DNA of 44,278 nt from a virus: positions 1-44,278 of the IMG/VR virus record IMGVR_UViG_3300009183_002617. The stretch is one strand, 5' to 3'. Below, one piece after another: positions 890 to 22,252 of the stretch. Below the pieces are notes generated by a model that ran no database searches, was not told the DNA's origin, and saw nothing but the letters and a program-made list of their open reading frames with translations. A program made the position numbers and the translations under genes. Position 1 is the stretch's first letter. Every line of letters starts with the position of its first letter.

Positions 890-3800
890 TTAGATTGGAA
901 GACATGCAAAGTAAACACCATTGTAAGTAAATCCACCACCATTTCGTGTATTACAAACAATGGGGTAACCAATAACACCATTACCACCGCATGTAGTAGC
1001 ATCACCCATAGAATGTTGATCAGGATCTGCATTACACGCTGTATCACCAAATGGACCACCACGACCATCATATGCATTATAAGTAGTTCCGCGTATTAAC
1101 ATTGCAAATCCAGCAATATCTATATTTGAACCATATGTTGATGTATTGATTGTAGTATCTACATTAAATATACGTAAACCACTATAATTTCCGGCATAAA
1201 GGTTTGTATTACTCTGATATTTGGTAATATTAATCCACCAGGTTCCTGGACTTAATGTTACACCTCTAAAATCAAAACTAGGAGGACCATCTAAAGAAGA
1301 TAAAGATATTTGAATCAATTCTCCTACTGGAGATTTTCCACCACAACTTCCATCTATATATCTACTTTGTAGTGGATCCATATTTACTGAAGCTGGATAA
1401 TCTCCATCTGCAGATGGTTTTGTTTGCCAAAGACTAGGTGTAACTAAGAATTCTCTTGGTGTTGGAGTCCATCTATTAGATCCGTTATAGGAAATTATAT
1501 CACCCGCACACAATCCGTTTTCTGGACGGTTTGGATATAATTTAGAAATTATTGCAGAACCATCAGAAGTAGAACTTCCACCAGTTACACTAATCATCAA
1601 TCCATTCTGAGATGAACACGCTCCAATTATAATATTGGACCCAGCAACTAAATTAACATTACCAGAAAATCCTGCTACAGATGGGGAAGATAAAGTTACA
1701 ACACCAATATTGGTAATAGTAACATTACCAGTAGGACCAGAAACTATAATACCTGCTCCACCAATAGCAGCACACACACCTTGGATCGCTCCAGTTCTTC
1801 CATTAAAACTTCTTACAATAGTACCGTTATAATTTCCACTTACAGTAAGATTACTACCACCTGTGACCGTAATATTTCCATATGCAATTGTATTAACAGA
1901 TTGAGTAGAAGTTCCAATACTGAATGTAGTATCTTTTAAAGCTATACTAGCATTAGTAGCAAAAGCACCAACATGTGATAAAGATATACTTTTAGTAGTA
2001 TCTAGTGATGAAATACTATTAATATCAGTAATACTTGATGGTAAACTTAAAGTTACTATACCTGTTCCACTTCCCGGAGTAGGAAGTGAAGATGCTGTAA
2101 TTTGTGAAGTTGTTCCAACTACTTGTCTTACACCACTATTGGTAATAGTTGGACTAGTCGCAGAACCTGTTAATAAAATTCCAGATCCTTGGCTAATGGA
2201 TGTAACACCCGTTACATTACCAGTAATACCATTAAATTGATTTACAAGATTTCCTGTAATTTGAGTTACATTTCCAACAATACTTATACCACATACACCA
2301 TTTAACAATAATGTGCCTGCTACACCATCTGTTTGAATATATGCTTCTCTTACTGGGGGGCCATATAGACTATTTGTACCAACAGATATAATCTTAGGAG
2401 AACTAATCTCAATATTATCAAAACTTGGATCAATTCTAATATCTGAGGTTGCACATACACCTCTAATATAAACGGTATTATCAAGAATAATTGGTCCAGA
2501 TGAACCGCATGCCCCTGCAGCTGAGAATGTTATAACATTATTTTGAAAAGTAATTCCAATATTATTTCCAGCAGACAGAGTTACAGAACCTGTGAAACCA
2601 TTTAATACAAATTGATTTATTCCAGATATACCATTAGGTACATTTAATAAACCATAAATGGTTGCGAGTGATTGAGTTGTTATACCAATGGTTGTTGAAT
2701 TAGCACCGAATCCTATAGCATTATGACCAATTACAATTTCATTACCGCCAGTTACAGATGTAGATATAGGAAATTTTGGTTTACTATTATTTCCAATAAA
2801 TATAGATTCTTTTGAAGTTTGATTAGATGATCCACTACTATCTGTTTTTGCAGTATTGATACCAATTGCAATATTATTGCTACCATTTTGAATAAATTGT
2901 AATGCCGTATCTCCAATAGCAATATTACCAGTTCCACCTCTCACATTGAATAGTGTGTTTTTTCCAATTCCAATATTTTTATTAGATCCTGTAGCAGATG
3001 ATAATGCGCTATCACCTATTGCTATATTATTGAAACCATTTATATTAGCACGTAAGGATGCATCTCCAATCGCTATGTTATTACTTCCTGTACCCGGTAG
3101 AGCACTAGCACCAAATACAAGATTACTACTAATTTCACCAACACCTCTTCCAATTCTAACATTTCCTTTAACTATAATATCATTACTAAAAGTACCACCA
3201 CTAGCCGAAATACCAGAACTAAAGGTTTGTAGTACTACAAAGTTATTTGCAGTTCCTGTAGTAACTCCGGTTACATCACCAGTAAGTCCATTGAAAGTCA
3301 TAACATATGGACCGCTGATACCATCATTACCAGTATTTCCCTGAATACCAGTAGCACCAGTATTTCCCTGAATACCAGTAGCACCAGTATTTCCCTGAAT
3401 ACCAGTAGCACCAGTATTTCCCTGAATACCAGTAGCACCAGTATTTCCCTGTGGACCAGTTGGACCAGTATTTCCCTGTGGACCTGGAGCCGTTGACCCT
3501 GCACCAGTAGCACCAGTATTTCCTTGAATACCAGTAGCACCAGTATTTCCTTGAGGACCAGTAGGACCTTGAGGACCGGCAGAACCCTGTGGACCAATTT
3601 CTCCTTGTTGACCAATAGCACCTGCAAGATTTATTTTCCAATTAGATCCACGTCCACTTCCACACACACCACTTACACTTATTGTCATACCTGGTGGAGC
3701 ATAACTGGATATAAATCCGTTAAAATATTGTGTAAGACTTACAGCGGCTAATACACTCTGTGCAGTGGTATATGCCAATCCTGTTGGAACACTTAAAAAT

Positions 3801-4513
3801 ACAACAGAACCTTCGGGTGTACGAGAAAGATTAATTTCAGTACCAGAAGTTGTACTATATAAGTCTCCCGGTGTTCCAGTAGTTCCAGTAGTTCCGGTAG
3901 ATCCACGAAGTCCAGTTGCACCAGCATTACCAGTATTGCCCTGAGCACCCTGTTCACCAAAAAGATTTAAAGTCCAAGATGTAAATCTTCCTGATCCAAC
4001 AATTTTTGTTATAGTTAGCGCTACATTAGTAGAAGCCGAATTCACATTTGTAATAGTTCCAATAAAATAATTATTAATATCAGCCGCTATAATTAAAGTT
4101 TGACCAATAGAATACGCTGGTGCAGGTGTTGCAAATACAGAGAAAGCAATAGGATCACCAACAACATAATCACCTATGGATTCTTCTGCAAAACTTACTG
4201 ATAAATATCCTGCACCAGTAGTACCCCTAATACCAGTAGTACCTGTTGCACCAGTATTGCCAGTAGCACCTTTGTTTCCTTGAATACCAGTAGCCCCAGT
4301 ATTTCCTTGAAAACCCTGTGGACCAGGATCTCCCTGTTCACCAGGATTTCCTTTTGCACCAATATTTCCTTGAGGACCTTGTGGACCCTGTGGTCCTGTA
4401 GGTCCAATAGGACCAACTAAAGTATTACCGGGTCCAACTGGTCCCTGTGCTCCAGTGGCTCCGGGAACTCCATACGGAGTTCCGTAAACTATTACATTAA
4501 TGATGTCTTCCAT
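890..4513 (-). CDS. Large collagen-like tail fibre with YadA-like head repeats
   Basis: This 1207-residue protein starts [15 protein letters not shown]. Gly-X-Y blocks lie at about residues 11-100, 184-215 and 296-400; most are GNTGATG or [10 protein letters not shown] units rich in Thr. Residues of about 465-545 carry repeats such as [11 protein letters not shown] and [10 protein letters not shown], the pattern of YadA/trimeric-autotransporter head repeats, which form left-handed parallel beta-rolls in trimers. The C-terminal 150 residues look globular and end in a Gly/Cys-rich segment ([15 protein letters not shown]). More than ten Cys residues are spread through the distal half, which is unusual for a phage fibre. 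No chaperone-type autoprocessing domain is evident. A perfect TATAAATA element precedes the gene with only 9 nt to the ATG. A host-binding fibre is the likely role; the receptor is unknown. Confidence 0.85.
3331..3451 (-). repeat. Perfect 27-bp tandem repeat in collagen block
   Basis: Four identical 27-bp copies (3331-3357, 3358-3384, 3385-3411, 3412-3438) plus a 13-bp partial copy. On the coding strand each encodes nine residues, a GATGIQGNT-type unit. Base-perfect identity at synonymous sites points to recent duplication. Confidence 0.95.
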
Positions 4514-4551: not shown

Positions 4552-7500
4552 TTAGGCTGAAGCATAATTTTGTCCACCAATAAATCCTAAAAATGAAGTT
4601 CCCTTATCTACTGTTACGAATGAGAATACATCAACTTTTTGGACTCCAAGAGATCCTGAAGTTAATGTGGGAGCAATTCCACCAGCCCATCTTATTTTAG
4701 ATCCCCAGTTAATTGTAGAAGCTGGTGTATTCATCTGTACTATTAAAGTAAATCCAACAGTACGATTATTAATTGTTGGTGTATTTGTTATAGATACAGT
4801 GTTAACTGTGCGAGTTAATGCCAAAGTAAAGACTTGAGCAACTGATAAATCTAAAGTAATAGAAGCACTAGGATCAGTACCAACAATACTAACTGCTGCA
4901 AAGGGTTCATCATAAAACTGAAGTGTTGGTTGATATATTGTATTTTTATTAAAATCTGCAGTTAAACCACCAGGTGTACCTAGACCTGTTGGTATAATGG
5001 TAAAGCCAGTAGTAAAATTCTGAGTTGCCGTAAAATTCTGAGCAACATCTAATTTAGCAACATTTGTAATTGCACCAGTAGCAGAATTAATACTTAAGAC
5101 ACCATTATTTGTAAATGTAAGAGTATTTCCTGCGCTACTAACTGCTAATCCAGTAGAACCAGTAAATCCAACATTACCTGTTATACCTGTAACAGTATTA
5201 ACAATATTAATACCAGATATGCCACCAGATCCTACAGTTATTTTTGTTGCAGTAAGATTGGCAGTAGTTAAATTGGCAGCACATACTCCAATAGTACCAA
5301 ATTGGTTTAATTCTCCAGTAATACCATGGAAGCCATCATTAACTCTTCTATTGTTTATAGAAACTAAATCCAATTCATATCTTTGATAATCACTTTGTGA
5401 TAATCTATTAATTAATGGAACATAATAAGAAGATCCATGAGAATTATTACTAAGGAATATTTTATTATAAGCAGTACCAGAACCATATGCATGACTACTT
5501 AATAACGATCCACCAGTACATCCAGTACTTCCACCCTCAGTCCCATTTGTTATACCTGTATAAGGTGATATCTTGGCAACATAATTATTTGTTATTGTTG
5601 TATAAACAGCAGTCTGTGATGGAGTAGAACTAACAGCACCATCGGTATTTGATGATCTTGTACCAATTTGTGCTAATCTTTGAGATTCACCTTTTCCTAT
5701 AATAGAATTTCCGTCTGCAGTTATAAAGAGTGGTTGAGTTGCTGATGCACCTGCAAGTCCGGAAGATTGTGTGCCATCATTCTCAGCTACAGCTATAACA
5801 CCTCCTCTATATACTCCAATATTTGCAGGAACATTATTAATAATAATATTATCTCTAACTGTATAGTATTTTGGTCTACCCATACTAATATCAGTATAGA
5901 ATGCTATTGCACTAGAGCTGTCATAAGGAAAATTTCTTGTAGCTGCTATTGGCAAACCATCATCTGTAAATGGACTTTTTCCATCAGTAGTAACATCAAA
6001 GTGGAATATATTATTGCTAACATTACCAACAGCAATTTGAGGATTTATGTGTGGTGAACCTCTAGCAATAGATCTAACATTGCAATATATTTGATTACCA
6101 GTTATTGTAGCTTCATCGCCTTGAATTTTTATTGAACGACCTTGACAATTTGTAAATTTATTATTTGCTACAATACTACTTGCTGGAATAGTATTTGCAC
6201 CATAAGTTCGTCCACCAAATAATACTACTCCATCTGCATCAGAATTTGTAGAAACATCTCCACCAGAAGTTCCTGTTAAAATATTTTCAAATACATTATT
6301 TGTTACATTAACCCATTCTGCATATGTGGATTCTGCGCCTCGATTTGTTACAGCAAAGGCTTGACATCCCCCATTAGCTATTGGAGTTGAAGATCTTAAT
6401 ATATTTTTAAATAATGAATTTGTTAATGTAACACTTTTAAATCCACCCTCAATATAACATCCAAGACTAGCTGGTGTTAAAGCTGTACCAAAAGTATTAA
6501 GAAACTGACAATTATTAATAAAAATTCGTGCGGTTGATTGAGAAGCAGAATAAGATTGAAAAATTCTAGAATTTGTATTATTTGCATCAAAAATTATATT
6601 TTCTAGATGAATATAATTGGTATCTCCATTTAATGTCAACATCCCAGCACCAGTAGCACCACCATATTTTATAGTAGCATTATCTCCTAAAAGTTTAATA
6701 TCTTTACTAACAGGTTCAAAACCAAGTGCTGCGTTTATTTTATATGTTCCATATGGAAAATATATTGTTCCTGAAGAAATACCGGTAAATCCAAACATAG
6801 CACCTAATGCTGTTTGAATAGCAGCTCTATCGTCTGTAATACCGTCACCAATTGCACCAAAGTCCTTAACAGAAAATACATCTTTCAATTTACTGTCTAT
6901 TGTACGAGCGACTGCACCACTACCAGATTGTGTAAAACAAAGACCAGAAAGAGTTACATTACCAGTGGCACCTGTATTGCCCTGAATACCAGTAGCACCA
7001 GTATTACCTTGATTACCAGTATTACCTTGATTACCAGTATTTCCCTGAATACCAGTAGCACCAGTATTTCCTTGATTACCAGTATTTCCTTGATTACCAG
7101 TATTACCTTGGTTACCAGTATTACCCTGAATACCAGTAGCACCAGTATTTCCTTGATTTCCAGTATTTCCTGTATTACCAGTATTTCCTTGTGAACCAGT
7201 AGGACCGGGAACAGTAGAACTTGCACCAGTAGGACCTTGAATTCCTGGATCACCCTTTTGTCCTACTGCACCATTAAGATTTACCTCCCATACATTAGCA
7301 AAAGCTGTACCCGTAACAGTACTAACCGTAAGAGATAATGTTACACCACTATAACTATTAACTGTTGCAACAAAAGATTGACATACACCTGCTGCAACTA
7401 GAACAGTTTGAACTTTACTATATGCTAATCCAGACGGTACAGTTAATGTAACACCAATACCAGGACCAATACTTGCTAATGTAATACCAGCTGTACCAGT

Positions 7501-9255
7501 GGACTTGTAAATATCACCAGCCAGACCTGTACTACCAGTTGGACCATTATTACCTGTATTTCCTTGATTACCTGTATTTCCTTGAGGCCCAATTGGACCA
7601 GGAGCCGTAGAACCAGCACCAGTAGCACCGGTATTACCTTGGTTACCAGTATTTCCTTGATTACCAGTAGTTCCTTGATTACCAGTATTACCTTGGTTGC
7701 CAGTATTGCCTTGAATACCAGTTGCACCAGTATTACCTTGGTTACCAGTATTACCTTGGTTACCAGTATTACCTTGGTTACCAGTATTGCCCTGAATACC
7801 AGTGGCACCAGTATTTCCTTGGTTACCGGTATTTCCTTGTGGACCAGTTGGACCAATAGCAGTAGAACCTGCACCAGTGGCACCAGTGTTTCCCTGATTG
7901 CCTGTATTTCCTTGCGGACCAGTTGGGCCCGGGGCAGTAGAACCTGCACCAGTTGCACCAGTATTTCCTTGCATACCAGTAGCACCAGTATTTCCTTGGG
8001 GACCAGTTGCACCAGTTGAACCTACTCCACCGATAGAAGAAATTTGAATATTATTACCGGATAAAGATATACCAACATTAGAACCTGCTACTAAATTAAG
8101 TCCACCACTAAGACCATTGAGTGATGAGACTCCACTAGTAATACCACCCGTAGAAGTAATAATTACATTATTTCCACTAATTCCCAATGATACATTTTGA
8201 CCAGCAAGAAAATTTATAGATCCAGTAATACCATTTATACTATGTACAACGGTTCCCTGATAACTCCCACTAACACCAATATTGCCATTAATGTATACTA
8301 AACTACCACTTGGTGTTAGAATCAAATTTCCAGCAGATGAAAGATCCACAGTAGCATTTGTAAAAGCACCATCAGTAACATCATTATAAATAAGTTTAAG
8401 AATTTTTCCATCACTTTTATTAACTTCTATTGCATGTGTTCTAGCTAAAACACTATTTCTATTAATCAAAAGATTGGTATCAGATGCATTTTGGTTTCTA
8501 ATTCTAACCATGTTAGAACTAGTTTGTCCCAAAACTTCTAAAACAGTATACGATCCTAATCCTTCAACATCTCCCAATTGAACAAGACTAGGATCTTGAA
8601 AAAAGATTCCAGAATTTGCAATAAAATAAAAGAATGTACTTGCTTCCATTGCTTGAGGTAGTATTGCAAGTGTTGTATTGGGATCCCATGGTGCTAAAGA
8701 AATTTGACCAACTGTTAATTTTGAACCAAGTGGCAAATAAGACATGTAATTTGATGTACCAGTATCAATTTTTAATGCTTGATTACCAGTATTACTAACA
8801 AATACAGGATATTGTTGGGTGTTAGCAAAATTTGCTGTAGTAATAGCCATTTGTGTGGCAATACCACCATCAGCAGGAATCGTATCGTAAATAATAGTAC
8901 CAAAAGTAGAAGTATTACCGTTAACAGCAGTACCACTAACCTGAATAAATGTTATTTGATTACCAGAATATGCTGTAACTGTTCCATAAATATAATTTCC
9001 AATATCTGAAAAACTTACTTTTATTGTATGTCCAACAGATATTGCATTAGAGTTCGAAGATAAATCAACAGTTAATGTACTCGAATTACCATAACTTACG
9101 GTAATAGATCCTGTAAAGTTTAATAAAAAGAAACCTTGACCCGTATTACCTTGTGGACCAGCTGGGCCAGTTGCTCCTGTATTTCCACGGACACCTTCAA
9201 CAGCATATGGAGTTGGATATAAGGTTACTTGAACTGTTTTGCTTGGGTTTGCCAT
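4552..9255 (-). CDS. Giant collagen-like tailspike with pectate-lyase-type beta-helix
   Basis: This 1567-residue protein has collagen-like Gly-X-Y blocks at about residues 18-44, 411-571 and 663-766, dominated by GNTGNQG and GNTGATG units. At about residue 787 it enters a classic pectate-lyase-3/GH55-like entry motif ([19 protein letters not shown]). A stretch to about residue 1300 follows that is rich in Asn, Thr and Ile and fits a right-handed parallel beta-helix; such domains in tailspikes cleave or bind surface polysaccharide. Residues of about 1445-1567 ([23 protein letters not shown]) resemble the C-terminal cap seen on many environmental phage fibres. The ATG follows the stop of the 9257-9655 gene by one base with no Shine-Dalgarno sequence, so translation is probably coupled. 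Enzyme activity cannot be read from the sequence. Confidence 0.88.
6955..7200 (-). repeat. Degenerate 9/18-bp Gly-X-Y coding repeat
   Basis: Imperfect tandem units such as accagtattaccttgatt, with a variable third position, encode the third collagen-like block of the spike. Copies differ by single bases (acc/tcc, ttg/ctg), unlike the base-perfect 27-bp array in the neighbouring gene. Confidence 0.8.
7727..7780 (-). repeat. Perfect 18-bp tandem repeat in spike gene
   Basis: Three identical 18-bp copies (7727-7744, 7745-7762, 7763-7780), each encoding two Gly-X-Y triplets (a GNQGNT unit). They sit in a longer degenerate run of about 7540-8020. Confidence 0.9.
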
Positions 9256-9256
9256 A

Positions 9257-9655
9257 TTAGGAATTCGCAGTTACATCAGGGAGAGTTTCAATTCTTCCTC
9301 TTAATATGGTTATTACACCACCGTTATTTGGATATTGAAGCTGCATATCATAGAATGAGGAAGAATATTCTGAAAAACTTTTAGTATAATTGGATCCAAC
9401 TGTAACATATATTAACCCAGCATTAGCATCGGCAGCTAATCCTCCAACGACACCGTTAACTGGAATAGGTGAAGATCCTGCTGGTATTCCAAGTACATAT
9501 GATACCAAAAGACCACTTGGATGATAACTTTTTCTTACTTGCATAGATAACGTAGCTCCACCTAAATCAAAGCTATTACCTGCTGCACTTGAAACATTCA
9601 TTACCCAAGTTAATGTATCACCTTTGACAACAACTGGATTAAAGTTATCTGACAT
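9257..9655 (-). CDS. Small virion-type protein, BppU-N-like
   Basis: A 132-residue protein begins with [11 protein letters not shown] and then [15 protein letters not shown]. This layout (a polar 'x-Gly-Asp-Thr' strand, then 'Asp-Leu-x-Gly-Ala-Thr-x-x-x-Gln-Val-Arg') is typical of small N-terminal baseplate or fibre-attachment domains in many phages (BppU-type immunoglobulin-like fold). It lies immediately upstream of the giant spike gene and its stop is one base from that ATG, so the two are probably made together. It has its own late-promoter-like element and a 56-nt leader with a hairpin and a GGAG ribosome-binding site 10 nt from the ATG. A connector or adaptor for the spike is my inference. 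Confidence 0.6.
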
Positions 9656-9733: not shown

Positions 9734-10951
9734 TCAGAGTTTAACAGTAGCTGCTTTGGGATCCATTACCAGAGTAGTTTTATTACTGGCTTTGATTACC
9801 TTTTCTGACCACTCTTTTGTTTGATTTGCAAGGGCTTCTTGCATCTTTTGCATACCTTGCCCATAAATTTTATAATTATTGGCAATTCTTTCTCTGTGTT
9901 CCTGTGGTAGATGTGGTTCCTTTAGCAACTTTTCACAAGTTGCAATACCAATTTCTGGTCTACCGGTGTAGTATGCCGTTGTGGCAATCTCATCAAAAAT
10001 TCCCCATGCGTAATTTGCCTTATCAACAAACAGAATATCATTTTCTGGAAGAGGAATACTAAGACCCAATGAAGCCACTAAGAATGCATTTCTCGGTCTA
10101 TTGTACTTTCTGTAGATGCAGGAAAGGTGATATAGTGGTTCTACTCGATTTGGAGCAGTCTCAAATGCCATCATAAATGCATCTGTAATTTCATGAACCG
10201 GCTTTCCTTGGAATTCACGACACATTCCTACTCGCATCCATGAGAAGAACACTTCTTCATGCCAAGATTCAAGTTTAATTCGTGCCATGTATTCCGTTTC
10301 TGCAACATCATACATTCTAGCATCAAATGCTGACTGTGCTGCATAAAATTGCTTACGAGGCTGATTTGGATCTTTTTCTAGGTAAGACTTAAGAATATGA
10401 TAATCTTTAGTGTACTTTTCAGTATCATTGGCAACTGCACGTGAGCGACAGCCTTCAGTACGAACTTCCCATCCATAATTACCTTCAAGCTTTTTAACAT
10501 TCATGGGCTGTTCACACATTGCATATTCATGCAATGGTTCTTCGTACCACCACTTCTTTCTTGCAATATTGAAAACCTGTGCACGAAGCCACTGAAACTC
10601 ACCTCGTTTGATCTGCACAACATAACCATCCAATTCATCATCAAAGGATGCGACTGGCAATTCTCCAACAAGAAAATCATCAGCATCGATCATCATAACC
10701 CACTTGGTTTTACCCATGCAGGCTTCTAGTGCCTTTGATCTATTGGTTCCGAAATCAGACCATTCGTGATCTAGAATTTCACCAGGAATTCCCTTTTCAT
10801 CAAAGAACTTCTTAATTATTTCCTTAGTGTTATCGGTTGAACCCGTATCACAAATTATATAATAATTAATAAATGGTGCGCATGAAGCCAAGCATCTTTC
10901 AATATTTGGTGCTTCGTCCTTAACGATCATAGATAGTGTCAAATTATACAT
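9734..10951 (-). CDS. GT2 family glycosyltransferase with helical C-terminal region
   Basis: The N-terminal ~200 residues are a GT-A fold family 2 glycosyltransferase: LTLSMIVKDEAPNIERCL, then CDTGSTDNT, then the metal-binding MMIDADDF. The remaining ~200 residues are helical and TPR-like (FYAAQSAFDARMYDVAETEY, LYHLSCIYRKYNRPRNAF). This GT2-plus-helical-repeat layout resembles protein-modifying enzymes of the SunS type. I chose the ATG at 10951 (MYNLT): an AAGGA ribosome-binding site ends 5 nt before it, whereas the ATG at 10957 overlaps that site. The ribosome-binding site itself overlaps the regA stop. The gene separates regA from the fibre genes, where T4 would have DNA polymerase gene 43. 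The acceptor is unknown; fibre protein is one candidate. Confidence 0.85.
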   Translation of the reverse strand: MYNLTLSMIVKDEAPNIERCLASCAPFINYYIICDTGSTDNTKEIIKKFFDEKGIPGEILDHEWSDFGTNRSKALEACMGKTKWVMMIDADDFLVGELPVASFDDELDGYVVQIKRGEFQWLRAQVFNIARKKWWYEEPLHEYAMCEQPMNVKKLEGNYGWEVRTEGCRSRAVANDTEKYTKDYHILKSYLEKDPNQPRKQFYAAQSAFDARMYDVAETEYMARIKLESWHEEVFFSWMRVGMCREFQGKPVHEITDAFMMAFETAPNRVEPLYHLSCIYRKYNRPRNAFLVASLGLSIPLPENDILFVDKANYAWGIFDEIATTAYYTGRPEIGIATCEKLLKEPHLPQEHRERIANNYKIYGQGMQKMQEALANQTKEWSEKVIKASNKTTLVMDPKAATVKL

Positions 10952-10959
10952 AGTCATCC

Positions 10960-11385
10960 TTATGAATTAAAAAATTTACGTAGTGATCCGGTATTAAATT
11001 TAGGAATCAGTTCCCAATTATCTTTTTCTGTGTGTTTAATAATTTTAATACCATTGATTGGCATACAGTCATTAAGTTTATCTTTATCAACGACTTCAAG
11101 AAGTTCCCATTCTTCAAGTAATTTAACAATTGCATTACGTCTTTGCAAATCTTCATTTGAGACATTAGATGGAAGATCATCTAGTGCAAATAGTTCTTTA
11201 AAGTGTGCAACGATATAAACGTCATCTTTATGAATTAAATGACATGATTGATACAGGACATTCTTTCCTTTTGGAGAAACACCAATGCGAGAAAGGGTTT
11301 CACGAACAACCATGAAATCCTCTTCGTCCAAAAGATTAATATGAATACCAATATTTTTAAATGTTTTATCAGATAGATCAGACAT
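10960..11385 (-). CDS. regA: RegA translational repressor
   Basis: The 141-residue product matches T4 RegA (122 residues) through its core: LDEEDFMVVRETLSRIGVS, VLYQSCHLIHKDDVYIVAHF, then RRNAIVKLLEEWELLEVV and a C-terminal WELIPKF. T4 RegA binds AU-rich initiation regions of early mRNAs, including those of genes 44, 45 and its own, and represses their translation. Here it lies directly downstream of 45-44-62, as in T4. The ATG at 11385 has a clean AAGGA ribosome-binding site with a 6-nt spacer. N-terminal and C-terminal extensions account for the extra length. Confidence 0.93.
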   Translation of the reverse strand: MSDLSDKTFKNIGIHINLLDEEDFMVVRETLSRIGVSPKGKNVLYQSCHLIHKDDVYIVAHFKELFALDDLPSNVSNEDLQRRNAIVKLLEEWELLEVVDKDKLNDCMPINGIKIIKHTEKDNWELIPKFNTGSLRKFFNS

Positions 11386-11402: not shown

Positions 11403-11783
11403 TTACCTCACACCACCAGTATCAAGGGCTTTGCGTATTGCCTGCAAATCCTCGGTACTCAGTATATTTAGTACTTCTCTAGCCTTGGATTCTGTGTATC
11501 CGTATGCCTGCTTTATGAGAGTTACATTCTCTTCGGTATCTTTCCGTAACCAAGGAGAAAACCGCTTCTTTTTACGAACAGCAAGTCTATAGAAATCAAA
11601 CTGACTCTTGTTGTCTAACCAAGGAGAACAATTCATTTCGTTAGCATGGAATAGGGTGTCTGCAAAATAAGATAAACACCGATTGACTACAAACGGTGTA
11701 TATGCCTTGACCGCACCCTCATCTGTATCGAGAAGAGGTTTCTTGTCATGGTTTATGCTAGATAGAAAGTCTTTTAGTTGCAT
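11403..11783 (-). CDS. 62: Clamp loader small subunit gp62
   Basis: A 126-residue protein, shorter than T4 gp62 (187 residues), in the invariant T4 position between 44 and regA. The pattern TPFVVNRCLSYFADTLFHANEMN followed by a Lys/Arg-rich KKKRFSPWLRK is characteristic of gp62 in T4-like phages. With gp44 it forms the 4:1 clamp loader that opens the gp45 ring. Its ATG overlaps the gene 44 stop codon by one base (TGATG), indicating translational coupling, which suits a fixed-stoichiometry complex. Confidence 0.9.
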   Translation of the reverse strand: MQLKDFLSSINHDKKPLLDTDEGAVKAYTPFVVNRCLSYFADTLFHANEMNCSPWLDNKSQFDFYRLAVRKKKRFSPWLRKDTEENVTLIKQAYGYTESKAREVLNILSTEDLQAIRKALDTGGVR

Positions 11784-12727
11784 CAGTTAAACTCACAATC
11801 CATCATAAGTTGAACAATCAATGCCATAGTATTAATTTCCTGATCTGCTGCAAAAGCAGACTTATATTGATACTCAGCAATGATTAGAATAGCCTGTGGT
11901 ACCGAAGGATTCTTAAGAGATGTATATAGTTCAGTATATAAACGTTTATAAAAATCAGATGTATTAAGATCTAGATTCTGTACCACCCACTTACGGCATG
12001 ATACAAAGTCCTTGTTCTTCATAAACCCAAGAAGTTCCTTGTAGGATTCACTGCTACCTTGACCAAGAACTCCGATATCAATACTACCAGCAGAGGCATA
12101 TCTCTGTAGTTCATTGATAATACGGCGAAGATCTGGAAAATGCTTCTTTACAAGATTGACAATTACCGTCTTCTCATATGGAATCTTTTCTTGTGTAAGA
12201 ATGTATTCCACACGCTTCATCATTGCAGATGCAACAGCAGCCTTCTCGGCAGTAGGAACTGTAAAATCGATACCTGTGCAGCGAGAGTGCAGAGGTTCGA
12301 TGATACGATTCTTATAGTTACAAGTCATGATGAATCGGCAATTCTTTGCAAATTCTTCAATGGCTCCACGAAGAGCAGGCTGAATTGATTGTGCGTTGGC
12401 ATAATCAAACTCATCTAGAATTACAACCTTGAGATTTCCACTTAGGGAAACTGTTGAGGCGTAATTACGAATCTTCGTGCGTAATGTATCAATACCGTTC
12501 TCTTCAGAACAGTTAATAATAATACTTTCAGCACCAATGTCATTGGCAAGAGCACGGGCTACGGTTGTCTTTCCCGTACCCGCCTTGCCATAGAGCATCA
12601 TATTTGGAATTGTACCTTCCTTGATCATACCATTAAAAATAGTGGTAAGATCAATAGGAAGAATACAATCAGATAATGACTTGGGTCGATATTTTTCAAC
12701 CCAGAGCAGACTATTAATGTCAGACAC
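11783..12727 (-). CDS. 44: Clamp loader large subunit gp44 (AAA+ ATPase)
   Basis: This 314-residue AAA+ ATPase (T4 gp44 is 319) loads the sliding clamp. It shows WVEKYRPKSLSDCILP at the N-terminus, Walker A GKAGTGKTT at residues 48-55, Walker B VVILDEFD at about 101-108, sensor-1-like FIMTCN, and the SRC arginine-finger motif at about 147-149. The start is GTG at 12727, two bases after the gene 45 stop, preceded by a GGGG stretch with a 6-nt spacer. Order 45-44-62-regA is as in T4. Confidence 0.95.
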   Translation of the reverse strand: MSDINSLLWVEKYRPKSLSDCILPIDLTTIFNGMIKEGTIPNMMLYGKAGTGKTTVARALANDIGAESIIINCSEENGIDTLRTKIRNYASTVSLSGNLKVVILDEFDYANAQSIQPALRGAIEEFAKNCRFIMTCNYKNRIIEPLHSRCTGIDFTVPTAEKAAVASAMMKRVEYILTQEKIPYEKTVIVNLVKKHFPDLRRIINELQRYASAGSIDIGVLGQGSSESYKELLGFMKNKDFVSCRKWVVQNLDLNTSDFYKRLYTELYTSLKNPSVPQAILIIAEYQYKSAFAADQEINTMALIVQLMMDCEFN

Positions 12728-12729
12728 AA

Positions 12730-13401
12730 TTAACCCCGCTTGATAGCGATGTAGTAAGCAAGTTCCAGACTCTTATGAGTAAACTTAGATATAATAGTAT
12801 CACTTAATTCTACAGTGTAGGAACCAGGAATAAACTTAATCTCAGATACATTCAAAGTACCTTCAAAATCCTTACCAGTATAGTTTTCATCCAAAACAAT
12901 CTCAAAACTATTGGTAGTACTTTGGCTAGAATCGTCAACCATAATACGGAAAGAACCTTCCCCACCAATCATACGAAGATCACTTACCTGTAGAATGCTT
13001 GCTGCCTTCAAAATTTCATTTAGATCCTTTTCATCAAGATCAAACTTAATTGTGGTCTTTGGCATCTTCAGTTCTCTAGTAGGAACCGTCAGGAGGCTCG
13101 GTTCTGAGTAATAGTAAGTAACACTCGATCTACCGTTAGAAACGACTACATGGGTATCGTGGAACTCTAAATCGGGGTTTGAGAACATACTTACAACACC
13201 CAAAAACTTGTTCAAATCCCAAACAGGAACTTCAACATCAAAGTCCTCTGAGATTGTAGCCTCAACGTAAATATTCTTACCAGGAGAGATGGTCTTTAGG
13301 ACGTTTCCTGGTAAAATAAGAATATTTGAATTGATTGCTGCAAAGTTCTTGAGAATGTTATAGGTGTCTTTTGATAGACGCATTTTTGTCACAGTTTCCA
13401 T
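12730..13401 (-). CDS. 45: Sliding clamp gp45
   Basis: A 223-residue processivity clamp (T4 gp45 is 228). The sequence MRLSKDTYNILKNFAAINS is the start of the T4 protein; FDVEVPVWDLNKFLGVVSMF follows as in T4 (FDVAIYDLNGFLGILSL). In T4 the trimeric ring tethers gp43 polymerase and is also the co-activator of gp55-dependent late transcription. Two starts are possible: ATG at 13401, or ATG at 13383, which aligns with the T4 N-terminus. Neither has a good Shine-Dalgarno sequence, so I keep the longer form with reservation. Confidence 0.94.
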   Translation of the reverse strand: METVTKMRLSKDTYNILKNFAAINSNILILPGNVLKTISPGKNIYVEATISEDFDVEVPVWDLNKFLGVVSMFSNPDLEFHDTHVVVSNGRSSVTYYYSEPSLLTVPTRELKMPKTTIKFDLDEKDLNEILKAASILQVSDLRMIGGEGSFRIMVDDSSQSTTNSFEIVLDENYTGKDFEGTLNVSEIKFIPGSYTVELSDTIISKFTHKSLELAYYIAIKRG

Positions 13402-15619: not shown

Positions 15620-16662
15620 TCTTCATCCTTTGACATGGCTGCATTATATGCTGAGTTTATAATATCAGCAAGTACATTTTTATTAATTGATTTTTCTGTA
15701 ACTGTATCAATCTCTTCATGAAGTAACTGTAGTGTATCTTTATGAATGTCCACAGCCACTAGATCTGGGTTTGCAGTTACATCTTCTGTTACAGACAATT
15801 CTGCTACTCCTGCTTCATAGAATTTATCCATATACTTTTCAAAGGCTGGACTTTTAGTTCTATTCTTGATAAAGATCTTAACATATGTATCTTTGAACTT
15901 TGAGTAGTCTAACTTTTCTGGGTTGGTTTCATCGTAGTCAAACGTATAGAAAAGCCTTTTTGGATTCTCGATAAATTCAAGCGTTCTTGCTGCAAAATCA
16001 AAGACATGAAACCCTTTGGCTTCCCAAACGTCTGAGAAAGCCATTTGGTACTGAGATCCCAGGTAATGTATATTATCCCGGCTAGATTTAATGTGATAAT
16101 GACCAGTAAGAACATATTCAAATTTGTCAAAATGTTTTGGGTCATAGCCATGCTCAATAAAGATACCGCGAATACTCTGAAAGCCACACAACTCTAAATG
16201 TCCTAGTAATAGAGAGCAGGTAGTGTTAGTGATAAACTCTGCCGATTGAATCTCATTCTCTGGGTTAATCCAAGGCAATAGTGCTACACAACCAGCAGAA
16301 GTTTGAATCTCTGTTGGCTCTGAATGAATCTCCCAGTTAGAATACTGCTGTGCAATTTCTTGTAAAGAATTGACCGTATTATTATTCTTGTAGTAAGTAT
16401 CGTGATTGCCACAGATGGCAATACACTTTACGCCAAGATCTTGAAGGGGTTCAAAGAAACGTGTACGAACCTGTTGAAGAGTCTTAAAATTAATATATTT
16501 TCTACGATCAAAGACATCACCTAGATGAAATATGGTCTTGATATCGTTTTCTTTAATATATGGAAATAACTGTCCCTCAAAGAAGGACAGAAAGTATTCT
16601 AAAACTATTGGGGAATCTGCTTTGTACCCAAAATGGGTATCGTTAAGAATTATTGATTTCAT
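15616..16662 (-). CDS. 47: Recombination nuclease subunit gp47 (Mre11/SbcD-like)
   Basis: A calcineurin-type phosphoesterase with all metal motifs in order: NDTHFG near the N-terminus, [24 protein letters not shown] and LTGHYHIKS. It is the nuclease partner of gp46. I chose the ATG at 16662 ([12 protein letters not shown], 348 residues) because it aligns with T4 gp47, which begins just before the first metal motif; an upstream ATG at 16707 would add 15 unrelated Lys-rich residues. The chosen start still lies 20 bases inside the 3' end of gmd. The Shine-Dalgarno sequence is weak. Confidence 0.94.
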
Positions 16663-17671
16663 ATATCTGTCTAACTTCTTTTTTTGCAAGTTTAACATCT
16701 TGATCAACCATCATCTTAGCCAGGTCATATACAGATACTTTTGGTTTCCAGTTTAATACTTGTTGAGCCTTAGTTGAATCTCCAAGAAGTTGATCAACTT
16801 CAGTAGGTCTATAATATTTTGGGTCTATTACTACATAATCTTTATAATTTTTTTCAATCAAACCAAAAGCATAATCACAAAATTCTCTAACAGAAATCAT
16901 CTGCCCAGTAGCAATAACATAATCATCTGGTGTGTCTTGTTGAAGCATCATCCACATTGCCTCAACATAATCACCAGCATACCCCCAATCTCTTAGTGAG
17001 TCAAGGTTTCCTAATCTCAATTCTGTTTGGAGACCCTGAGAAATTCTACCTACAGCCCTAGTAATTTTTCTAGTTACAAAGGTTTCACCTCTACGAGGAC
17101 TTTCGTGATTAAATAAAATACCACACGAAGCATGTATATTATAACTTTCTCGATAATTGATAGTCATAAAATGACTATATGCTTTAGCACAACCATAAGG
17201 TGATCTAGGATAAAATGAAGTAGTTTCTTTCTGAGGAACTTCTTGTACTTTTCCAAACATTTCACTACTTGATGCTTGGTAGTACCGAATTTTATTACCA
17301 GTATGATCTTGATATGAACGTATAGCTTCTAGAATATTAGTTGTCCCTATAGCATCTACATTTCCAGTATATACTGGCATATCAAATGATAATCTTACAT
17401 GGCTCTGTGCTGCAAGATTATAAATTTCTGTAGGATTATGTTTTAACAGAATATTGTATATACTAGTAAAATCATTCATATCTCCATAGTGAAGAAATAA
17501 TGTTTTATTGTAAACTTTTGGGTTGTCAATATGATGTTCCAATCTTTCAGTATTAAATGAAGAACTTCGGCGTATTAATCCATGAACCTCATATCCTTTT
17601 GAAATAAGAAGGTCAGTAAGATAACTTCCGTCTTGTCCAGAAATTCCAGTAATTAATGCTATTTTTTTCAT
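16643..17671 (-). CDS. gmd: GDP-mannose 4,6-dehydratase
   Basis: A full-length 342-residue extended short-chain dehydrogenase. The Rossmann motif is [11 protein letters not shown] near residue 8, followed by [12 protein letters not shown]. The catalytic region is present: SSSEMFG and [12 protein letters not shown] (the YxxxK pair). It converts GDP-D-mannose to GDP-4-keto-6-deoxymannose, the precursor of GDP-L-fucose, GDP-D-rhamnose and GDP-perosamine. The gene is wedged between 55 and 47: its ATG overlaps the gp55 stop (ATGA) and its 3' end overlaps the gp47 start by 20 bases. No GDP-fucose synthase or reductase lies in the window, so a host or distant phage enzyme would have to finish the pathway. 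Confidence 0.95.
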
Positions 17672-18240: not shown

Positions 18241-18246
18241 ACTTAT

Positions 18247-18274
18247 ATTATACAACAAATCCACTTAAATGCAA
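18247..18274 (-). promoter_or_regulatory. Sigma70-type promoter for gene 55
   Basis: Minus strand -35 TTGCAT (18269-18274), 16-bp spacer, -10 TATAAT (18247-18252). The GTG at 18240 begins six bases after the -10 box, so the predicted transcript starts at the start codon itself. Confidence 0.6.
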
Positions 18275-18293
18275 TAAATTATTTAAGATATAT

Positions 18294-18740: not shown

Positions 18741-18743
18741 TAT

Positions 18744-20117
18744 TTAATTTTTATAGTTTTCTAAAAAATATTTTAAATCTTCTGGTGTTCCCAATCCCCA
18801 CATCTTTTGTGCATTGGTTGTTATTAACTTTTTTCCATCTAATATTGCTTGATTAAACACAGGACAAACATAAAATTCATTATTAACTCTAATATTTTTT
18901 TCTATCATAGTTTCGGCATATTTTACAAAATCTTTTCCGTGTTTCCAGTAATAATACCCAACAGTAGCAAGATTGGAAATGGGATTTTTTTCAGCAACTT
19001 CTGTAACATATCCATTTTTATCAATTTTTGCAAACGACCATTTTGGATGTGCTGACTCAAATGTAACAATTCCACCATCACAGTTTTGTTCTTTCATTTT
19101 ATACATAAACTCATTTGAGTTCCATTCAACAAATTGATCGCTATTAGCAAAAAATAAAGGATTTTCATTATTAATTAAATCTTTAGCTAATAATGCTGTA
19201 CAAGCTGCACCCTCAGTTAAACCATCTACTTCTATAATTGAACAACCAGGAACAATTAAATTTAACAAACCATCTAAATTATATTTTTCTCTATGGATTT
19301 TTTGTACTATAAAAATATAATTTGCATCTATGTTTATATTTTCAACAACCAATTGAATCATTGGTTTTCCATTTACATCTATTAACGGTTTTGGAAATGT
19401 ATAACCTGCTTTTTCAAATCTGGAGCCAGCTCCAGCCATTGGTATTAAAATATTTACAGTTTTGTCAGACCATTTTGGCATATTATATTCCTTTTCTGTT
19501 TGAATGTTATGTATTTTATCATTAATAAAATTTATATTTATTTCATCTGGACTAGACACTCTTAATATATGGGCTTTACTTCTGTGTGCGGCTATTAAGC
19601 CGTGGGGAGAATCTTCTAATATTAGAGTATTTTCTGGTATACATTCTAACTGTGACATACATTTCCAATACATTTCTGGGTGGGGTTTACTATTTTTAAC
19701 ATCTTCATTGGATAAGATAACATCAAAATATTCAATTACTTGAAGTTTATGTAAAACTAATAATACTGTTTTTTTTATACTATTACTACAACATGCAATT
19801 TTATATTTATTTTTAATTAAAAATTTAAAACATTCTATTAATTGTTCTGAAGGTTCTACATTTTTTAAATATTCTGTTGTATAATTCTGTTTATCTTCCC
19901 AAATTCTTTTATGTAAATTTGTAGGTAGATTTTTTTCTTCTGTCAACAGTTTTAATTTTTCATTGGTTTTAAGACCATCGTATTTGGTTAGATGTTCTTT
20001 CCATGATATTTGATATAAATCACCTAAAGCTTTATTTAAAGCATCAAAATGTATTTTTTTTGCTTTAACAAGCACACCATCAAGATCAAAAATAATAAGT
20101 TTAATGTTATTTGTCAT
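18744..20117 (-). CDS. HAD phosphatase fused to sugar nucleotidyltransferase
   Basis: A 457-residue two-domain protein. Residues 1-210 are a beta-phosphoglucomutase-like HAD hydrolase: IIFDLDGVL with nucleophile D11 and D13, CCSNSI, NSKPHPEMYW and LEDSPHGLIAA. From about residue 222 a nucleotidyltransferase fold begins with VNILIPMAGAGSRFEKAG, then FPKPLIDVNGKPMIQ, and ends with WGLGTPEDL. Together these could dephosphorylate a sugar phosphate and activate the product, or one related to it, to an NDP-sugar. Both active sites look intact. The ATG overlaps the stop of the gene before it in transcription (20114-20117). Confidence 0.85.
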   Translation of the reverse strand: MTNNIKLIIFDLDGVLVKAKKIHFDALNKALGDLYQISWKEHLTKYDGLKTNEKLKLLTEEKNLPTNLHKRIWEDKQNYTTEYLKNVEPSEQLIECFKFLIKNKYKIACCSNSIKKTVLLVLHKLQVIEYFDVILSNEDVKNSKPHPEMYWKCMSQLECIPENTLILEDSPHGLIAAHRSKAHILRVSSPDEININFINDKIHNIQTEKEYNMPKWSDKTVNILIPMAGAGSRFEKAGYTFPKPLIDVNGKPMIQLVVENINIDANYIFIVQKIHREKYNLDGLLNLIVPGCSIIEVDGLTEGAACTALLAKDLINNENPLFFANSDQFVEWNSNEFMYKMKEQNCDGGIVTFESAHPKWSFAKIDKNGYVTEVAEKNPISNLATVGYYYWKHGKDFVKYAETMIEKNIRVNNEFYVCPVFNQAILDGKKLITTNAQKMWGLGTPEDLKYFLENYKN

Positions 20118-20719
20118 TGATTATTTTTAAAAAATATATTTTCTTCATTTTGTTGTTTTGTTATATCAATTATTTTAAAATTGTTTTTTTCTAAAAAATC
20201 TAACATATCTTTTTTTGAATGTTGATTTTTATATAACTTAACTTCTTCGTTCATTGGAACTTCTACAACTCCAGATTTAATAATTTGAATTTTTTGTCCA
20301 AAAGATTCTAAAACTTTTAAATCATTTCCTTGAGTATCTATATGAACATAATCTATATGTTCTATATCAAGATTTTCTTTTAAAAATGTGTCCATTCTTG
20401 TAACTAAAACCTCAACATCATATGTAACTTTTAAATCTAACCTATTTGGCCAGGTTTGATCTAAATTATTAGAAAAATCCAATAAAGAACTACATCCCCA
20501 ATCTGCTTGACCCGCAACATGAAATACTGATTTACCATTGTAATCTGATATAGCTTTTTCAATTAAAAAATAAGTAGGTATATTTGTATAACCTTTTTGT
20601 TTTATATTATTAATTAATTCTGGAGTTGGTTCAAAACAATAAACAAACGAACCATTTCTAGCCTGTTGTAAAAAAGTATCTCCTGTGTTTGCACCAATAT
20701 CAAAAATTATTGTTTTCAT
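20114..20719 (-). CDS. FkbM family methyltransferase
   Basis: A 201-residue SAM-dependent methyltransferase with motif I DIGANTGD at residues 7-14, the acidic CFEPTPELI loop, and IDYVHIDTQGNDLKVLESFG, the signature of FkbM enzymes. These usually O-methylate sugars in glycans. The stop overlaps the start of the HAD-nucleotidyltransferase gene as ATGA. No Shine-Dalgarno sequence precedes the ATG. Confidence 0.85.
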   Translation of the reverse strand: MKTIIFDIGANTGDTFLQQARNGSFVYCFEPTPELINNIKQKGYTNIPTYFLIEKAISDYNGKSVFHVAGQADWGCSSLLDFSNNLDQTWPNRLDLKVTYDVEVLVTRMDTFLKENLDIEHIDYVHIDTQGNDLKVLESFGQKIQIIKSGVVEVPMNEEVKLYKNQHSKKDMLDFLEKNNFKIIDITKQQNEENIFFKNNQ

Positions 20720-20745
20720 ATAATGTTACTGTTTTATTAAACCAA

Positions 20746-21372
20746 TCATGGTTCTAACAACTGATGTTTTAAATACATAGTAGTTGGAACTCTTTTTATA
20801 TTTATAGATGGATTTTTACTTAAATGATAGTTTAAAAGAAATTCTGGATGAAAATATGGAATTTCATGTATATAATCTTTTATTTTATCATATAAGCTAC
20901 AATAATAAAAAAGATTATTATAATTTCCCAAACAACAAAGATCTAATATACCATTTCTAAAATTACCACCATGTGGTATTATTAATTTATCATCCTCATA
21001 ATAATCAAAAATATATTTTAAACTGTAACAATCAAACCTTGTTAAAAAAATTATATCATATGATTTATCAATCATATTAAAACATAATTGTCTTTTTCTC
21101 CACATGTTTAAAACATTACTAGCCCTTGTTTCTGGTTGTTTTTTGGATTCACATAAAGATAAAAGATTTAAATCTAAATTTTTAGATGTGTCATCTAAAT
21201 CAAAAATATATTCCTTTGGTTTATAAAAATCTATAATTTCGTTTTTCTCTAAACAATCATATGAGTGTATAAAAATATCAATATTTGGATTTTTTTTATA
21301 AAAACCATAAATGTGATCTTTGTGAGAAAGACCACAGTTAACATGACCTGAGATCAATATTGCTGTTTTCAT
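20746..21372 (-). CDS. Putative glycosyltransferase of uncharacterised family
   Basis: A 208-residue protein starting MKTAILISGHVNCG. It has DIFIHSYDC, a WRKRQLCFNMI helix and a short acidic motif FLTRFDCY (R-x-D), followed by PHGGNFRNGILDLCCLGN. This is the layout of small nucleotide-sugar-dependent enzymes found in phage and capsule clusters, where R-x-D replaces the DxD metal site. I do not recognise a characterised family. The assignment rests on this layout and on the surrounding glycan genes. Confidence 0.5.
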   Translation of the reverse strand: MKTAILISGHVNCGLSHKDHIYGFYKKNPNIDIFIHSYDCLEKNEIIDFYKPKEYIFDLDDTSKNLDLNLLSLCESKKQPETRASNVLNMWRKRQLCFNMIDKSYDIIFLTRFDCYSLKYIFDYYEDDKLIIPHGGNFRNGILDLCCLGNYNNLFYYCSLYDKIKDYIHEIPYFHPEFLLNYHLSKNPSINIKRVPTTMYLKHQLLEP

Positions 21373-21383
21373 TCTTTTTATTT

Positions 21384-22247
21384 TTAAATAATAGAATTTT
21401 TCTTTAAGAAAACTAAAAGATTGTCTATATTTACATTCATATTATCTAAATGATCTATTTTATCTGTATAGAATTTGTAATATGGTATAGAACAGCTAGA
21501 ACACATACATTGATACAAATGATCTACCATGTGTGGATTCTGGGTATTCATTTCAACAATTTTTGTTTTTGAATTTGCAAATAAAGAAAATGTTAATGCT
21601 CCACTATTTGGAGATAGTATTGTATCTGCTTGATTAAAGATTTTTATTTTATCTACAGTTTTAAAATCTTCAAGATCTATGCATTCAAAACCATTTTGAC
21701 TAAGAATAGATTTTAATTCTTCATTGTTTACAACATTTCTTCTTTTTATACCAGAATTGCCATTAAGTAAATGTGATTTGTTTCGTGAAATATAGAATTT
21801 TTTATTTTTAAATTCTTCTGATTCATTTGGAATATTTTTTAAAAATAAATTTTTTAAAAAGAAATATAATTCTGAATCTATTGTACAACCTTCATTTGCA
21901 ACTGGTATGACTGGTTCACCATAACTTGTAATAACAATATCATCTGTTTTAATTTGTTCTTTTGGTATAAAAATAAAATCCGATTTGATTATATCCAACG
22001 ATTCAATATGAAAATCTCTAAGTTCAGTTGGCTTGGAACAAGTAATAAAATATGGAGCCTTTAAATTGGAAAGATATTGATCTTTTTCATCGAGATTTTG
22101 CTCTATCATTAGGTGTGGATTGCTATCTAGTCCAGCTCTTACTAAATTATTTGGTACTCTTCGTAAAGCACCTAACATTAAAATATACCAATGAAAAATA
22201 AAATCGCTTCCACGGTCTTCCATATTAAAAATAATTTTTTTATTCAT
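21384..22247 (-). CDS. GT61-like (DUF563) glycosyltransferase
   Basis: A 287-residue protein. The C-terminal half matches GT61/EOGT-type enzymes: FYISRNKSHLLNGNSGIKRR, NEELKSILSQNGFECIDLED, then IFNQADTILSPNSGALTFSLFA. In that family the conserved Arg-rich stretch and the 'G-ALT' segment form the donor site. An AAGG lies nine bases before the ATG. Substrate unknown. Confidence 0.75.
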   Translation of the reverse strand: MNKKIIFNMEDRGSDFIFHWYILMLGALRRVPNNLVRAGLDSNPHLMIEQNLDEKDQYLSNLKAPYFITCSKPTELRDFHIESLDIIKSDFIFIPKEQIKTDDIVITSYGEPVIPVANEGCTIDSELYFFLKNLFLKNIPNESEEFKNKKFYISRNKSHLLNGNSGIKRRNVVNNEELKSILSQNGFECIDLEDFKTVDKIKIFNQADTILSPNSGALTFSLFANSKTKIVEMNTQNPHMVDHLYQCMCSSCSIPYYKFYTDKIDHLDNMNVNIDNLLVFLKKNSII

Positions 22248-22252
22248 TTTAA

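What the first reader, a model, noticed from the sequence alone, without database searches (positions are those of the whole stretch)
9734..10951. GT2-plus-helical-repeat enzyme next to the fibre genes, in the place of DNA polymerase
In T4, gene 43 follows regA. Here a glycosyltransferase with a TPR-like C-terminus follows regA and is itself followed by the fibre genes. Some enzymes of this layout (SunS) modify peptides, which makes fibre protein a plausible acceptor.
Basis: inference. Interest (0 to 1): 0.5.

Follow-up and report, generated by a model that had tools for sequence, protein, structure and literature searches.

The report
Phage enzyme that probably sugar-coats fibres
A T4-like phage carries, beside its collagen-like tail-fibre genes, an enzyme whose bacterial relatives often sit beside collagen-like genes too, so the phage probably attaches sugars to its own fibres.

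Summary
The gene is real: a 407-aa enzyme (9734-10957, minus strand) with a GT-A glycosyltransferase domain and a C-terminal TPR superhelix, directly after regA. It does not stand "in the place of DNA polymerase": in six relatives gene 43 lies 8-23 kb further downstream on the same strand. The useful result concerns the acceptor. (1) In most phage relatives the gene lies beside collagen-like fibre genes or their collar gene. (2) Its bacterial relatives have a collagen-like gene within 3 kb in 23 of 50 loci (26 of 50 in the locus), against 0 of 40 random windows, and those collagens are rich in Gly-X-Thr. (3) Collagen is encoded in 38 of 43 GT-bearing phage records and 3 of 18 GT-less ones. (4) C. 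difficile SgtA, same layout, adds GlcNAc to threonines of a collagen repeat (published). Best reading: an initiating O-glycosyltransferase for collagen-like fibres; a separate, hypervariable glycan island may supply outer sugars. Against it: in 49 of 141 typed phage rows the neighbouring collagen has under 10% Thr in the Y position; a regA-linked phage subgroup has no fibre gene beside the enzyme; no chemistry was tested.

The parts
9734..10957 (-). GT2-TPR glycosyltransferase, 407 aa (GT-A domain about residues 1-165, TPR superhelix about 170-391)
10463..10957 (-). GT-A catalytic domain; invariant DTGSxD (37-42), DAD (91-93), HE (143-144)
   Evidence: alignment A1, 40 sequences; the same residues are invariant in A4, 11 bacterial relatives and L050
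9785..10450 (-). TPR-type helical domain
10960..11385 (-). regA, translational repressor, directly upstream
   Evidence: PF01818 E 2e-32
9257..9655 (-). 132-aa Ig-fold protein (phrog_1084, called o1084 here), probable baseplate or fibre-collar subunit
   Evidence: model pLDDT 86; top folds T5 tail tip 7qg9_J Z 10.9 and DT57C baseplate 8hqz_Q Z 10.8, then unrelated Ig domains at Z 9.8 and below
4552..9255 (-). collagen-like fibre A, 1567 aa
   Evidence: PF01391 E 8e-32
7510..8031 (-). collagen blocks of fibre A, residues 409-582, GNT/GNQ/GAT triplets
   Evidence: 50 of 95 triplets of fibre A have Thr in Y
6955..7272 (-). collagen blocks of fibre A, residues 662-767
890..4513 (-). collagen-like fibre B, 1207 aa; 29 of 68 triplets have Thr in Y
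   Evidence: PF01391 E 3e-29
16643..17671 (-). GDP-mannose 4,6-dehydratase (gmd)
   Evidence: TIGR01472 513 bits, cut-off 415
18744..26620 (-). hypervariable glycan island: HAD-nucleotidyltransferase, two FkbM methyltransferases, GT61, Methyltransf_24, GT47, GT2, GT7-like, GT11, one unknown; no stretch passes a simple hydropathy test for membrane segments
   Evidence: replaced by other glycan genes in phages with 96-97% identical GT
11403..13401 (-). gp62, gp44, gp45 (clamp loader and clamp), conserved backbone

Best explanation
The gene encodes a soluble, metal-dependent GT2 enzyme that works like C. difficile SgtA. In the infected cell it puts the first sugar (GlcNAc is the likeliest by analogy) on Thr/Ser residues of the phage's own collagen-like tail fibres, which the TPR groove holds as extended, not yet trimerised chains. 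Enzymes of the separate, exchangeable glycan island (fucose-type sugars, methyl groups) may then lengthen the glycan. Shown: the enzyme's layout, its conservation, its linkage and co-occurrence with collagen genes in phages and in several bacterial phyla, and the Thr-rich collagens beside its bacterial relatives. Inferred: the catalytic activity, donor, acceptor residue, chain state, and the role of the island.
For: Loci of the first two searches: of 68 distinct near-full-length GT genes, 60 have at least 2 kb downstream, and in 50 of these a gene with a run of 8 or more collagen triplets begins within 3 kb. More distant marine relatives (best 80 of 257): 54 have 2 kb on both sides; 44 of 54 have collagen and/or o1084 within 2 kb (34 collagen, 32 o1084), 8 have regA and 6 PolB. 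Pseudo-genes 3-7 kb upstream score 1-5 of 52-59. A further 79 loci, partly the same contigs: 39 of 53. Bacteria (best 80 of 550): 23 of the 50 loci with a long tblastn match lie within 3 kb of a run of 12 or more collagen triplets, 26 of 50 anywhere in the locus; random 13-kb windows from 15 of 30 of these genomes 0 of 40 (Fisher 7e-9). Without Streptomyces 13 of 34, p 9e-6. Thr in Y: median 0.76 in 22 collagens beside the enzyme, 0.34 in 15 not beside it, p 1.8e-4. Phage records: collagen in 38 of 43 with the GT, 3 of 18 without. SgtA passages (PMC7157674): GT-A plus four TPRs, gene next to bclA3, beta-O-GlcNAc on Thr of collagen peptides in vitro. SgtA-sized clostridial and bacillar relatives within 1 kb of collagen runs align over 74-85% of the phage profile (L206, L209, L221).
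Against: 49 of 141 phage tree rows with a typed neighbouring collagen have under 10% Thr in Y and 21 more have 10-30% (recounted), so Gly-X-Thr cannot be the only acceptor. The median over 58 phage loci of the first searches is 0.32, no higher than bacterial collagens away from the enzyme. In 17 marine rows the enzyme follows regA directly; the 8 of them with 2 kb on both sides all lack collagen and o1084 within 2 kb. Five GT-bearing records show no collagen: W05, G015, G070, G072, G074 (fragments). 24 of 50 bacterial loci have no collagen run in the locus. Of 18 collagen loci chosen without the GT, only 1 has a GT2-TPR gene nearby. GT alleles do not track o1084 alleles (98% against 52%, L019/L020), and their partial correlation (0.46) is about that of ordinary neighbours (regA-gp62, 0.41).
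Confidence: 0.6

Rival explanations
1. Virion glycosylation, but not on collagen: the enzyme modifies another part of the fibre, the o1084 collar, or another structural protein; collagen linkage in phages reflects only shared location in the host-recognition region.
For: Thr-poor collagens in many GT phages; o1084 within 2 kb in 32 of 54 marine loci.
Against: Bacterial relatives sit beside collagen-like genes with raised Gly-X-Thr; SgtA acts on collagen peptides.
Confidence: 0.17
2. Host-surface modification: the enzyme and the glycan island alter the LPS O-chain to keep rival phages off, as proposed for glycosyltransferases of pelagimyophages.
For: Published reading for the tail-fibre/GT cluster of pelagimyophages (PMC7029224, passages); gmd, GT11 and methyltransferases in the island.
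Against: GT2-TPR stays while the island is exchanged; no membrane segment, flippase or lipid-carrier enzyme among the island genes scanned; the rest of the genome is not in the window. Collagen linkage in bacterial genomes.
Confidence: 0.15
3. Modification of phage DNA bases, as with T4 glucosyltransferases.
For: Lies among replication genes; T4 has a beta-glucosyltransferase gene near gene 43.
Against: No hydroxymethylase or TET-type match among the window genes scanned, but the window is a fragment; fold nearest to peptide S-glycosyltransferases; collagen link.
Confidence: 0.03

Closest known systems
SgtA of Clostridioides difficile (BclA3 O-GlcNAc transferase; PMC7157674, passages)
   Same: GT-A domain then TPRs in about 360-400 aa; gene beside a collagen-like gene; collagen threonines available as acceptors
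   Different: bacterial spore enzyme; its sequence was not held, so homology was not scored; here phage-encoded and linked to tail fibres, with a glycan island elsewhere in the genome
SunS / ThuS peptide S-glycosyltransferases
   Same: best solved fold
   Different: 16-20% identity; looser over the full length (rmsd 7.5-11.5); fails the NCBI SunS cut-off (34 of 350 bits); glycocin precursors beside it were not searched for
GmaR of Listeria
   Same: best natural PDB profile hit for the GT domain, E 3e-18
   Different: antirepressor of flagellar genes (abstract start in a listing); its flagellin glycosyltransferase activity is recalled
Mimivirus L230 (collagen lysyl hydroxylase and glucosyltransferase; PMC9614988, passages)
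   Same: virus-encoded collagen-glycosylating enzyme
   Different: other enzyme family (27.7% identity to human GLT25D1 per that paper); acts on hydroxylysine
GT2 proteins of giant viruses (Indivirus A0A1V0SEC5 and others)
   Same: up to 35% identity, TM 0.82 over the phage enzyme
   Different: predicted models; function and neighbourhood not examined

Membership tests
Glycosyltransferase family 2 (GT-A) | Pfam PF00535 over its gathering score | tested here: met
   46.8 bits, cut-off 23.3
Glycosyltransferase family 2 (GT-A) | conserved DxD-type motif | tested here: met
   DAD at 91-93 invariant in 40 sequences
SunS peptide S-glycosyltransferase (TIGR04195) | score over the curated cut-off | tested here: not met
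   34.4 of 350 bits
SgtA-type collagen O-glycosyltransferase | GT-A domain followed by TPRs | tested here: met
   SgtA layout from passages
SgtA-type collagen O-glycosyltransferase | gene close to a collagen-like gene | tested here: met
   window: o1084, then fibre A 478 bp downstream; relatives, with the exceptions told there
SgtA-type collagen O-glycosyltransferase | sequence homology to SgtA itself | not testable with these tools
   SgtA sequence not held; SgtA-sized relatives from Clostridium, Bacillus and Paenibacillus align over 74-85% of the profile
SgtA-type collagen O-glycosyltransferase | transfer of GlcNAc to Thr/Ser of collagen repeats | not testable with these tools
   needs the assay named under next steps
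SgtA-type collagen O-glycosyltransferase | neighbouring collagen rich in Gly-X-Thr | tested here: inconclusive
   window 50/95 and 29/68 triplets; 49 of 141 typed phage rows under 10%

The most novel reading that the evidence does not exclude
GT2-TPR enzymes are a general collagen-modification system of prokaryotes and their viruses. Phages carry a constant initiating enzyme for their collagen-like fibres plus a quickly exchanged glycan cassette, so that phages with 99% identical replication genes wear different sugars on their fibres: a way of varying what hosts, defences or grazers see without changing the fibre protein.
Probability: 0.35. Interest if true: 0.8.

Novelty: new variant of a known kind. 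Interest (0 to 1): 0.6.

Why it matters
Collagen-like fibres were found in 38 of 43 GT-bearing phage records here, yet the passages seen of a review on prokaryotic collagens name glycosylation only for spore proteins of Bacillus and C. difficile and for mimivirus. If this enzyme family glycosylates collagen, one gene marks which phage and bacterial collagens are sugar-coated, gives a non-proline route to stable collagen, and offers another reading of phage glycan genes that have been taken as LPS-modifying. It is directly testable with one enzyme, one peptide and a mass spectrometer.

Tried and rejected
Rejected: the enzyme replaces gene 43. Rejected: it is SunS. Tried: allele-level co-evolution of GT and fibre collar. 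The partial Mantel r of 0.46 is matched by the neighbour control regA-gp62 at 0.41, and several phage pairs keep the GT while o1084 is exchanged, so I do not use it as evidence. L060, L061 and L063 carry a GT of only 60-66% identity on a backbone with 98-99% identical gp44 and gp62 (regA 84-94%), with an o1084 of 40-50%.

Tried: co-variation of GT with the glycan island. In the stretch held upstream of gp44, four relatives with 96-97% identical GT (L052, L055, L056, L058) share none of the window's island genes; two were scanned and hold other glycan genes. So the GT is not specific to one glycan.

Rows dropped. Thr-in-Y test: L171, L235 and L236 (collagen on both strands, ambiguous), L243 and L251 (turned out to be GT loci), L252 (has a GT beside it). 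The collagens not beside the enzyme came from the top of a listing cut short by the tool, from overlapping but not matched genomes. Record-level test: G060 (only a partial GT2 hit, E 2e-28) was left out; with it the GT-less count is 3 of 19. Of 26 handles asked, two were the same record, so 25. In one search I called 30 bacterial loci partial by tblastn coverage; one search shows that four of them (L206, L209, L211, L221) are 354-372-aa proteins aligning over most of the profile, so that group is not a clean control and I rely on the random windows. Those windows were placed by hand on contigs of 15 genomes, mostly contigs that one search lists with a collagen match elsewhere. The phage tree rows behind the 141 were made distinct by sequence only; some contigs enter twice through two searches.

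Trees: FastTree only; long branches and near-copies present. I claim only that phage rows group beside a clade holding collagen-linked bacterial rows under midpoint rooting, and that collagen type is clustered on the tree (15 changes, shuffled mean 38). Six lists of relatives were capped by the tool at the best 80.

Not found in print: searches listed no paper on a phage GT acting on collagen-like fibres; only open-licence PMC papers were searched, and I judged most hits by title and abstract start.

Full report
What is there. The window is a whole IMG/VR record of 44,278 bases, a fragment of a T4-like phage: gp23, prohead protease, portal, terminase, tail tube and sheath, UvsY and UvsW; late sigma factor (gp55), SbcC/SbcD-like gp46 and gp47, gp45, gp44, gp62 and regA. 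At 9734-10957 (-) lies a 407-aa protein, two bases behind regA. Residues 10-96 match Glycos_transf_2 at 4e-12. A profile of 40 relatives matches GmaR (3e-18), SunS (1e-15) and ThuS (7msk, 5e-13) in the PDB, and designed TPR proteins over about residues 180-305. The predicted model is confident (pLDDT 90.6). Its best solved matches are SunS and ThuS; the fit is close up to residue 281 and looser over the full length. Its best viral matches are giant-virus GT2 proteins at up to 35% identity.

The neighbourhood claim. In T4 regA is followed at once by DNA polymerase. PolB was found in 8 of 19 related records searched. In the six of the window's clade it is on the same strand, 8.5-23 kb past the enzyme, with collagen-like fibre genes between. 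In S-SM1 it is about 8 kb past regA. In more distant relatives the enzyme lies 0.8-4.6 kb before gene 43 (L042, L046, L048). So the regA-43 interval is an insertion region; the polymerase was not replaced.

Linkage to fibres in phages. In the window's clade the order gp45-gp44-gp62-regA-GT-o1084-fibres is nearly constant; three loci have an extra ORF between GT and o1084 (L067, L068, L074) and L121/L122 lack o1084. Of 60 distinct GT genes with 2 kb downstream, 50 have a collagen-run gene beginning within 3 kb. Further out the enzyme often leaves regA but mostly not the fibres: of 54 marine loci with enough flank, collagen and/or o1084 lie within 2 kb in 44, regA in 8. Pseudo-genes a few kb upstream reach 1-5 of 52-59; 4 kb downstream, among the fibres, 10 of 39. 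A third search gives 39 of 53, partly on the same contigs. The o1084 protein is Ig-like; its top two folds are T5-type tail-tip or baseplate chains, just ahead of many unrelated Ig domains. The exceptions form a group: in 17 marine rows the enzyme follows regA directly, and the 8 of these with enough flank all lack collagen and o1084 within 2 kb; the five loci of this kind looked at run on into other small genes and PolB. L334 of that group has collagen about 21 kb downstream in its record; the L308 and L341 records, 77 and 61 kb, show none.

Linkage to collagen in bacteria. A scan of GTDB genomes returned the best 80 of 550 relatives. Of 50 with a long match, 23 lie within 3 kb of a run of at least 12 Gly-X-Y triplets and 26 have one in the locus. 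They include Streptomyces, Lolliginicoccus, Catenulispora, Rhizobium, Mesorhizobium, Erythrobacter, Hydrocarboniphaga, Bacillus, Desulfosporosinus, an Eremiobacterota and a Hydrogenedentota genome (titles). Ten of the 23 are Streptomyces; without them it is 13 of 34. Forty 13-kb windows from 15 of these genomes hold no such run, and an upper bound from whole-genome Pfam counts is about 1.7% per gene. The collagens beside the enzyme are Thr-rich in Y (median 0.76, 22 loci) compared with other collagens of these genomes (0.34, 15 loci); the figure quoted in a review for all bacteria is 31.6%. The converse is weak: only 1 of 18 collagen loci picked without the enzyme has one nearby, and that one is a GNT-repeat collagen. 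So the enzyme predicts a collagen far better than a collagen predicts the enzyme.

Record-level co-occurrence in phages. Collagen (PF01391) is present in 38 of 43 GT-bearing records, chosen for GT similarity and contig length; seven of them were chosen because their loci showed no collagen near the GT. It is present in 3 of 18 GT-less T4-like records (Fisher 1.3e-7). Many records are fragments and related to each other, ten of the 18 GT-less records are named isolates of other groups, and the empty GT search has its positive control only, so the p-value is too small.

Precedent. I read the abstract and passages of PMC7157674. SgtA (358 aa, GT-A plus four TPRs) is encoded immediately upstream of bclA3; recombinant SgtA with UDP-GlcNAc and Mn2+ adds beta-O-GlcNAc to Thr, and also to Ser, in peptides of the collagen repeat, and the GlcNAc is called initiating there. 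Relatives of the same size within 1 kb of collagen runs in Clostridium, Bacillus and Paenibacillus (L221, L206, L209) align over 74-85% of the phage profile.

Model. The enzyme glycosylates collagen-like fibre protein. Glycosylated Thr in Y is a known way to stabilise collagen (Bann et al. 2000, seen only as a citation, otherwise recalled); fibres A and B have Thr in Y in 50 of 95 and 29 of 68 triplets and Pro in Y in 1 and 3. The glycan genes at 16643-26620 show no membrane segment by simple hydropathy. In phages with 99% identical gp44 and 96-97% identical GT none of the island genes is shared over the stretch held, and two such islands hold GT6, GT10, NodZ-like and aminotransferase genes instead. 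A constant first enzyme with an exchangeable set of later ones fits these facts; that the island acts on the same acceptor is inference.

What speaks against it. About a third of typed phage rows (49 of 141) have neighbouring collagens almost without Thr in Y (charged types such as GEQGPQGEKGDKG). In those, another residue or another fibre part must be the acceptor, or the enzyme does something else. GT and collar alleles are not locked together. The regA-linked group lacks neighbouring fibres. No activity was measured.

Novelty. Phage virion glycosylation (recalled), GT2-TPR enzymes and SgtA are known kinds. What I did not find in the searches listed under Tried and rejected is the link of this family to collagen-like genes across phages and bacteria. 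Hence: new variant of a known kind.

Noticed in passing
window 18744-26620 and loci L052, L055, L056, L058: The glycan island upstream of gp55 shares no gene, over the stretch held, with those of phages that have 99% identical gp44.
   Followed up: partly
window 16643-17671: gmd sits between gp55 and gp47 in the window and in at least eight relatives with a different GT allele (L060, L061, L063, L066, L067, L074, L089, L111; also L092, whose GT is cut), but not in the phages with the window's own GT allele (L001, L002, L004, L005).
   Followed up: no
window 36617-37135 and 37148-37696: Two adjacent tail-tube genes, both phrog_45.
   Followed up: no
window 4552-9255: Fibre A has, behind the collagen blocks, a stretch ([14 protein letters not shown]) that recalls beta-helix tailspikes; the resemblance is recalled and no Pfam hit supports it.
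   Followed up: no
BFVD A0A1V0SEC5, A0A3G5A4J5, A0A481Z8F6: Giant viruses encode structural relatives of the whole enzyme (up to 35% identity); whether they sit beside collagen genes was not tested.
   Followed up: no
L252 1741-5440: The Streptomyces genome of L167 has another GT2-TPR gene (E 1e-97) 2.1 kb from a GNT-repeat collagen.
   Followed up: no
L074, L069, L089: Some relatives carry very long collagen fibres with more than 490 triplets in one ORF.
   Followed up: no
L308, L328, L341: In phages where the enzyme lies between regA and PolB without fibres, an o1084-like gene lies 5-8 kb away.
   Followed up: no
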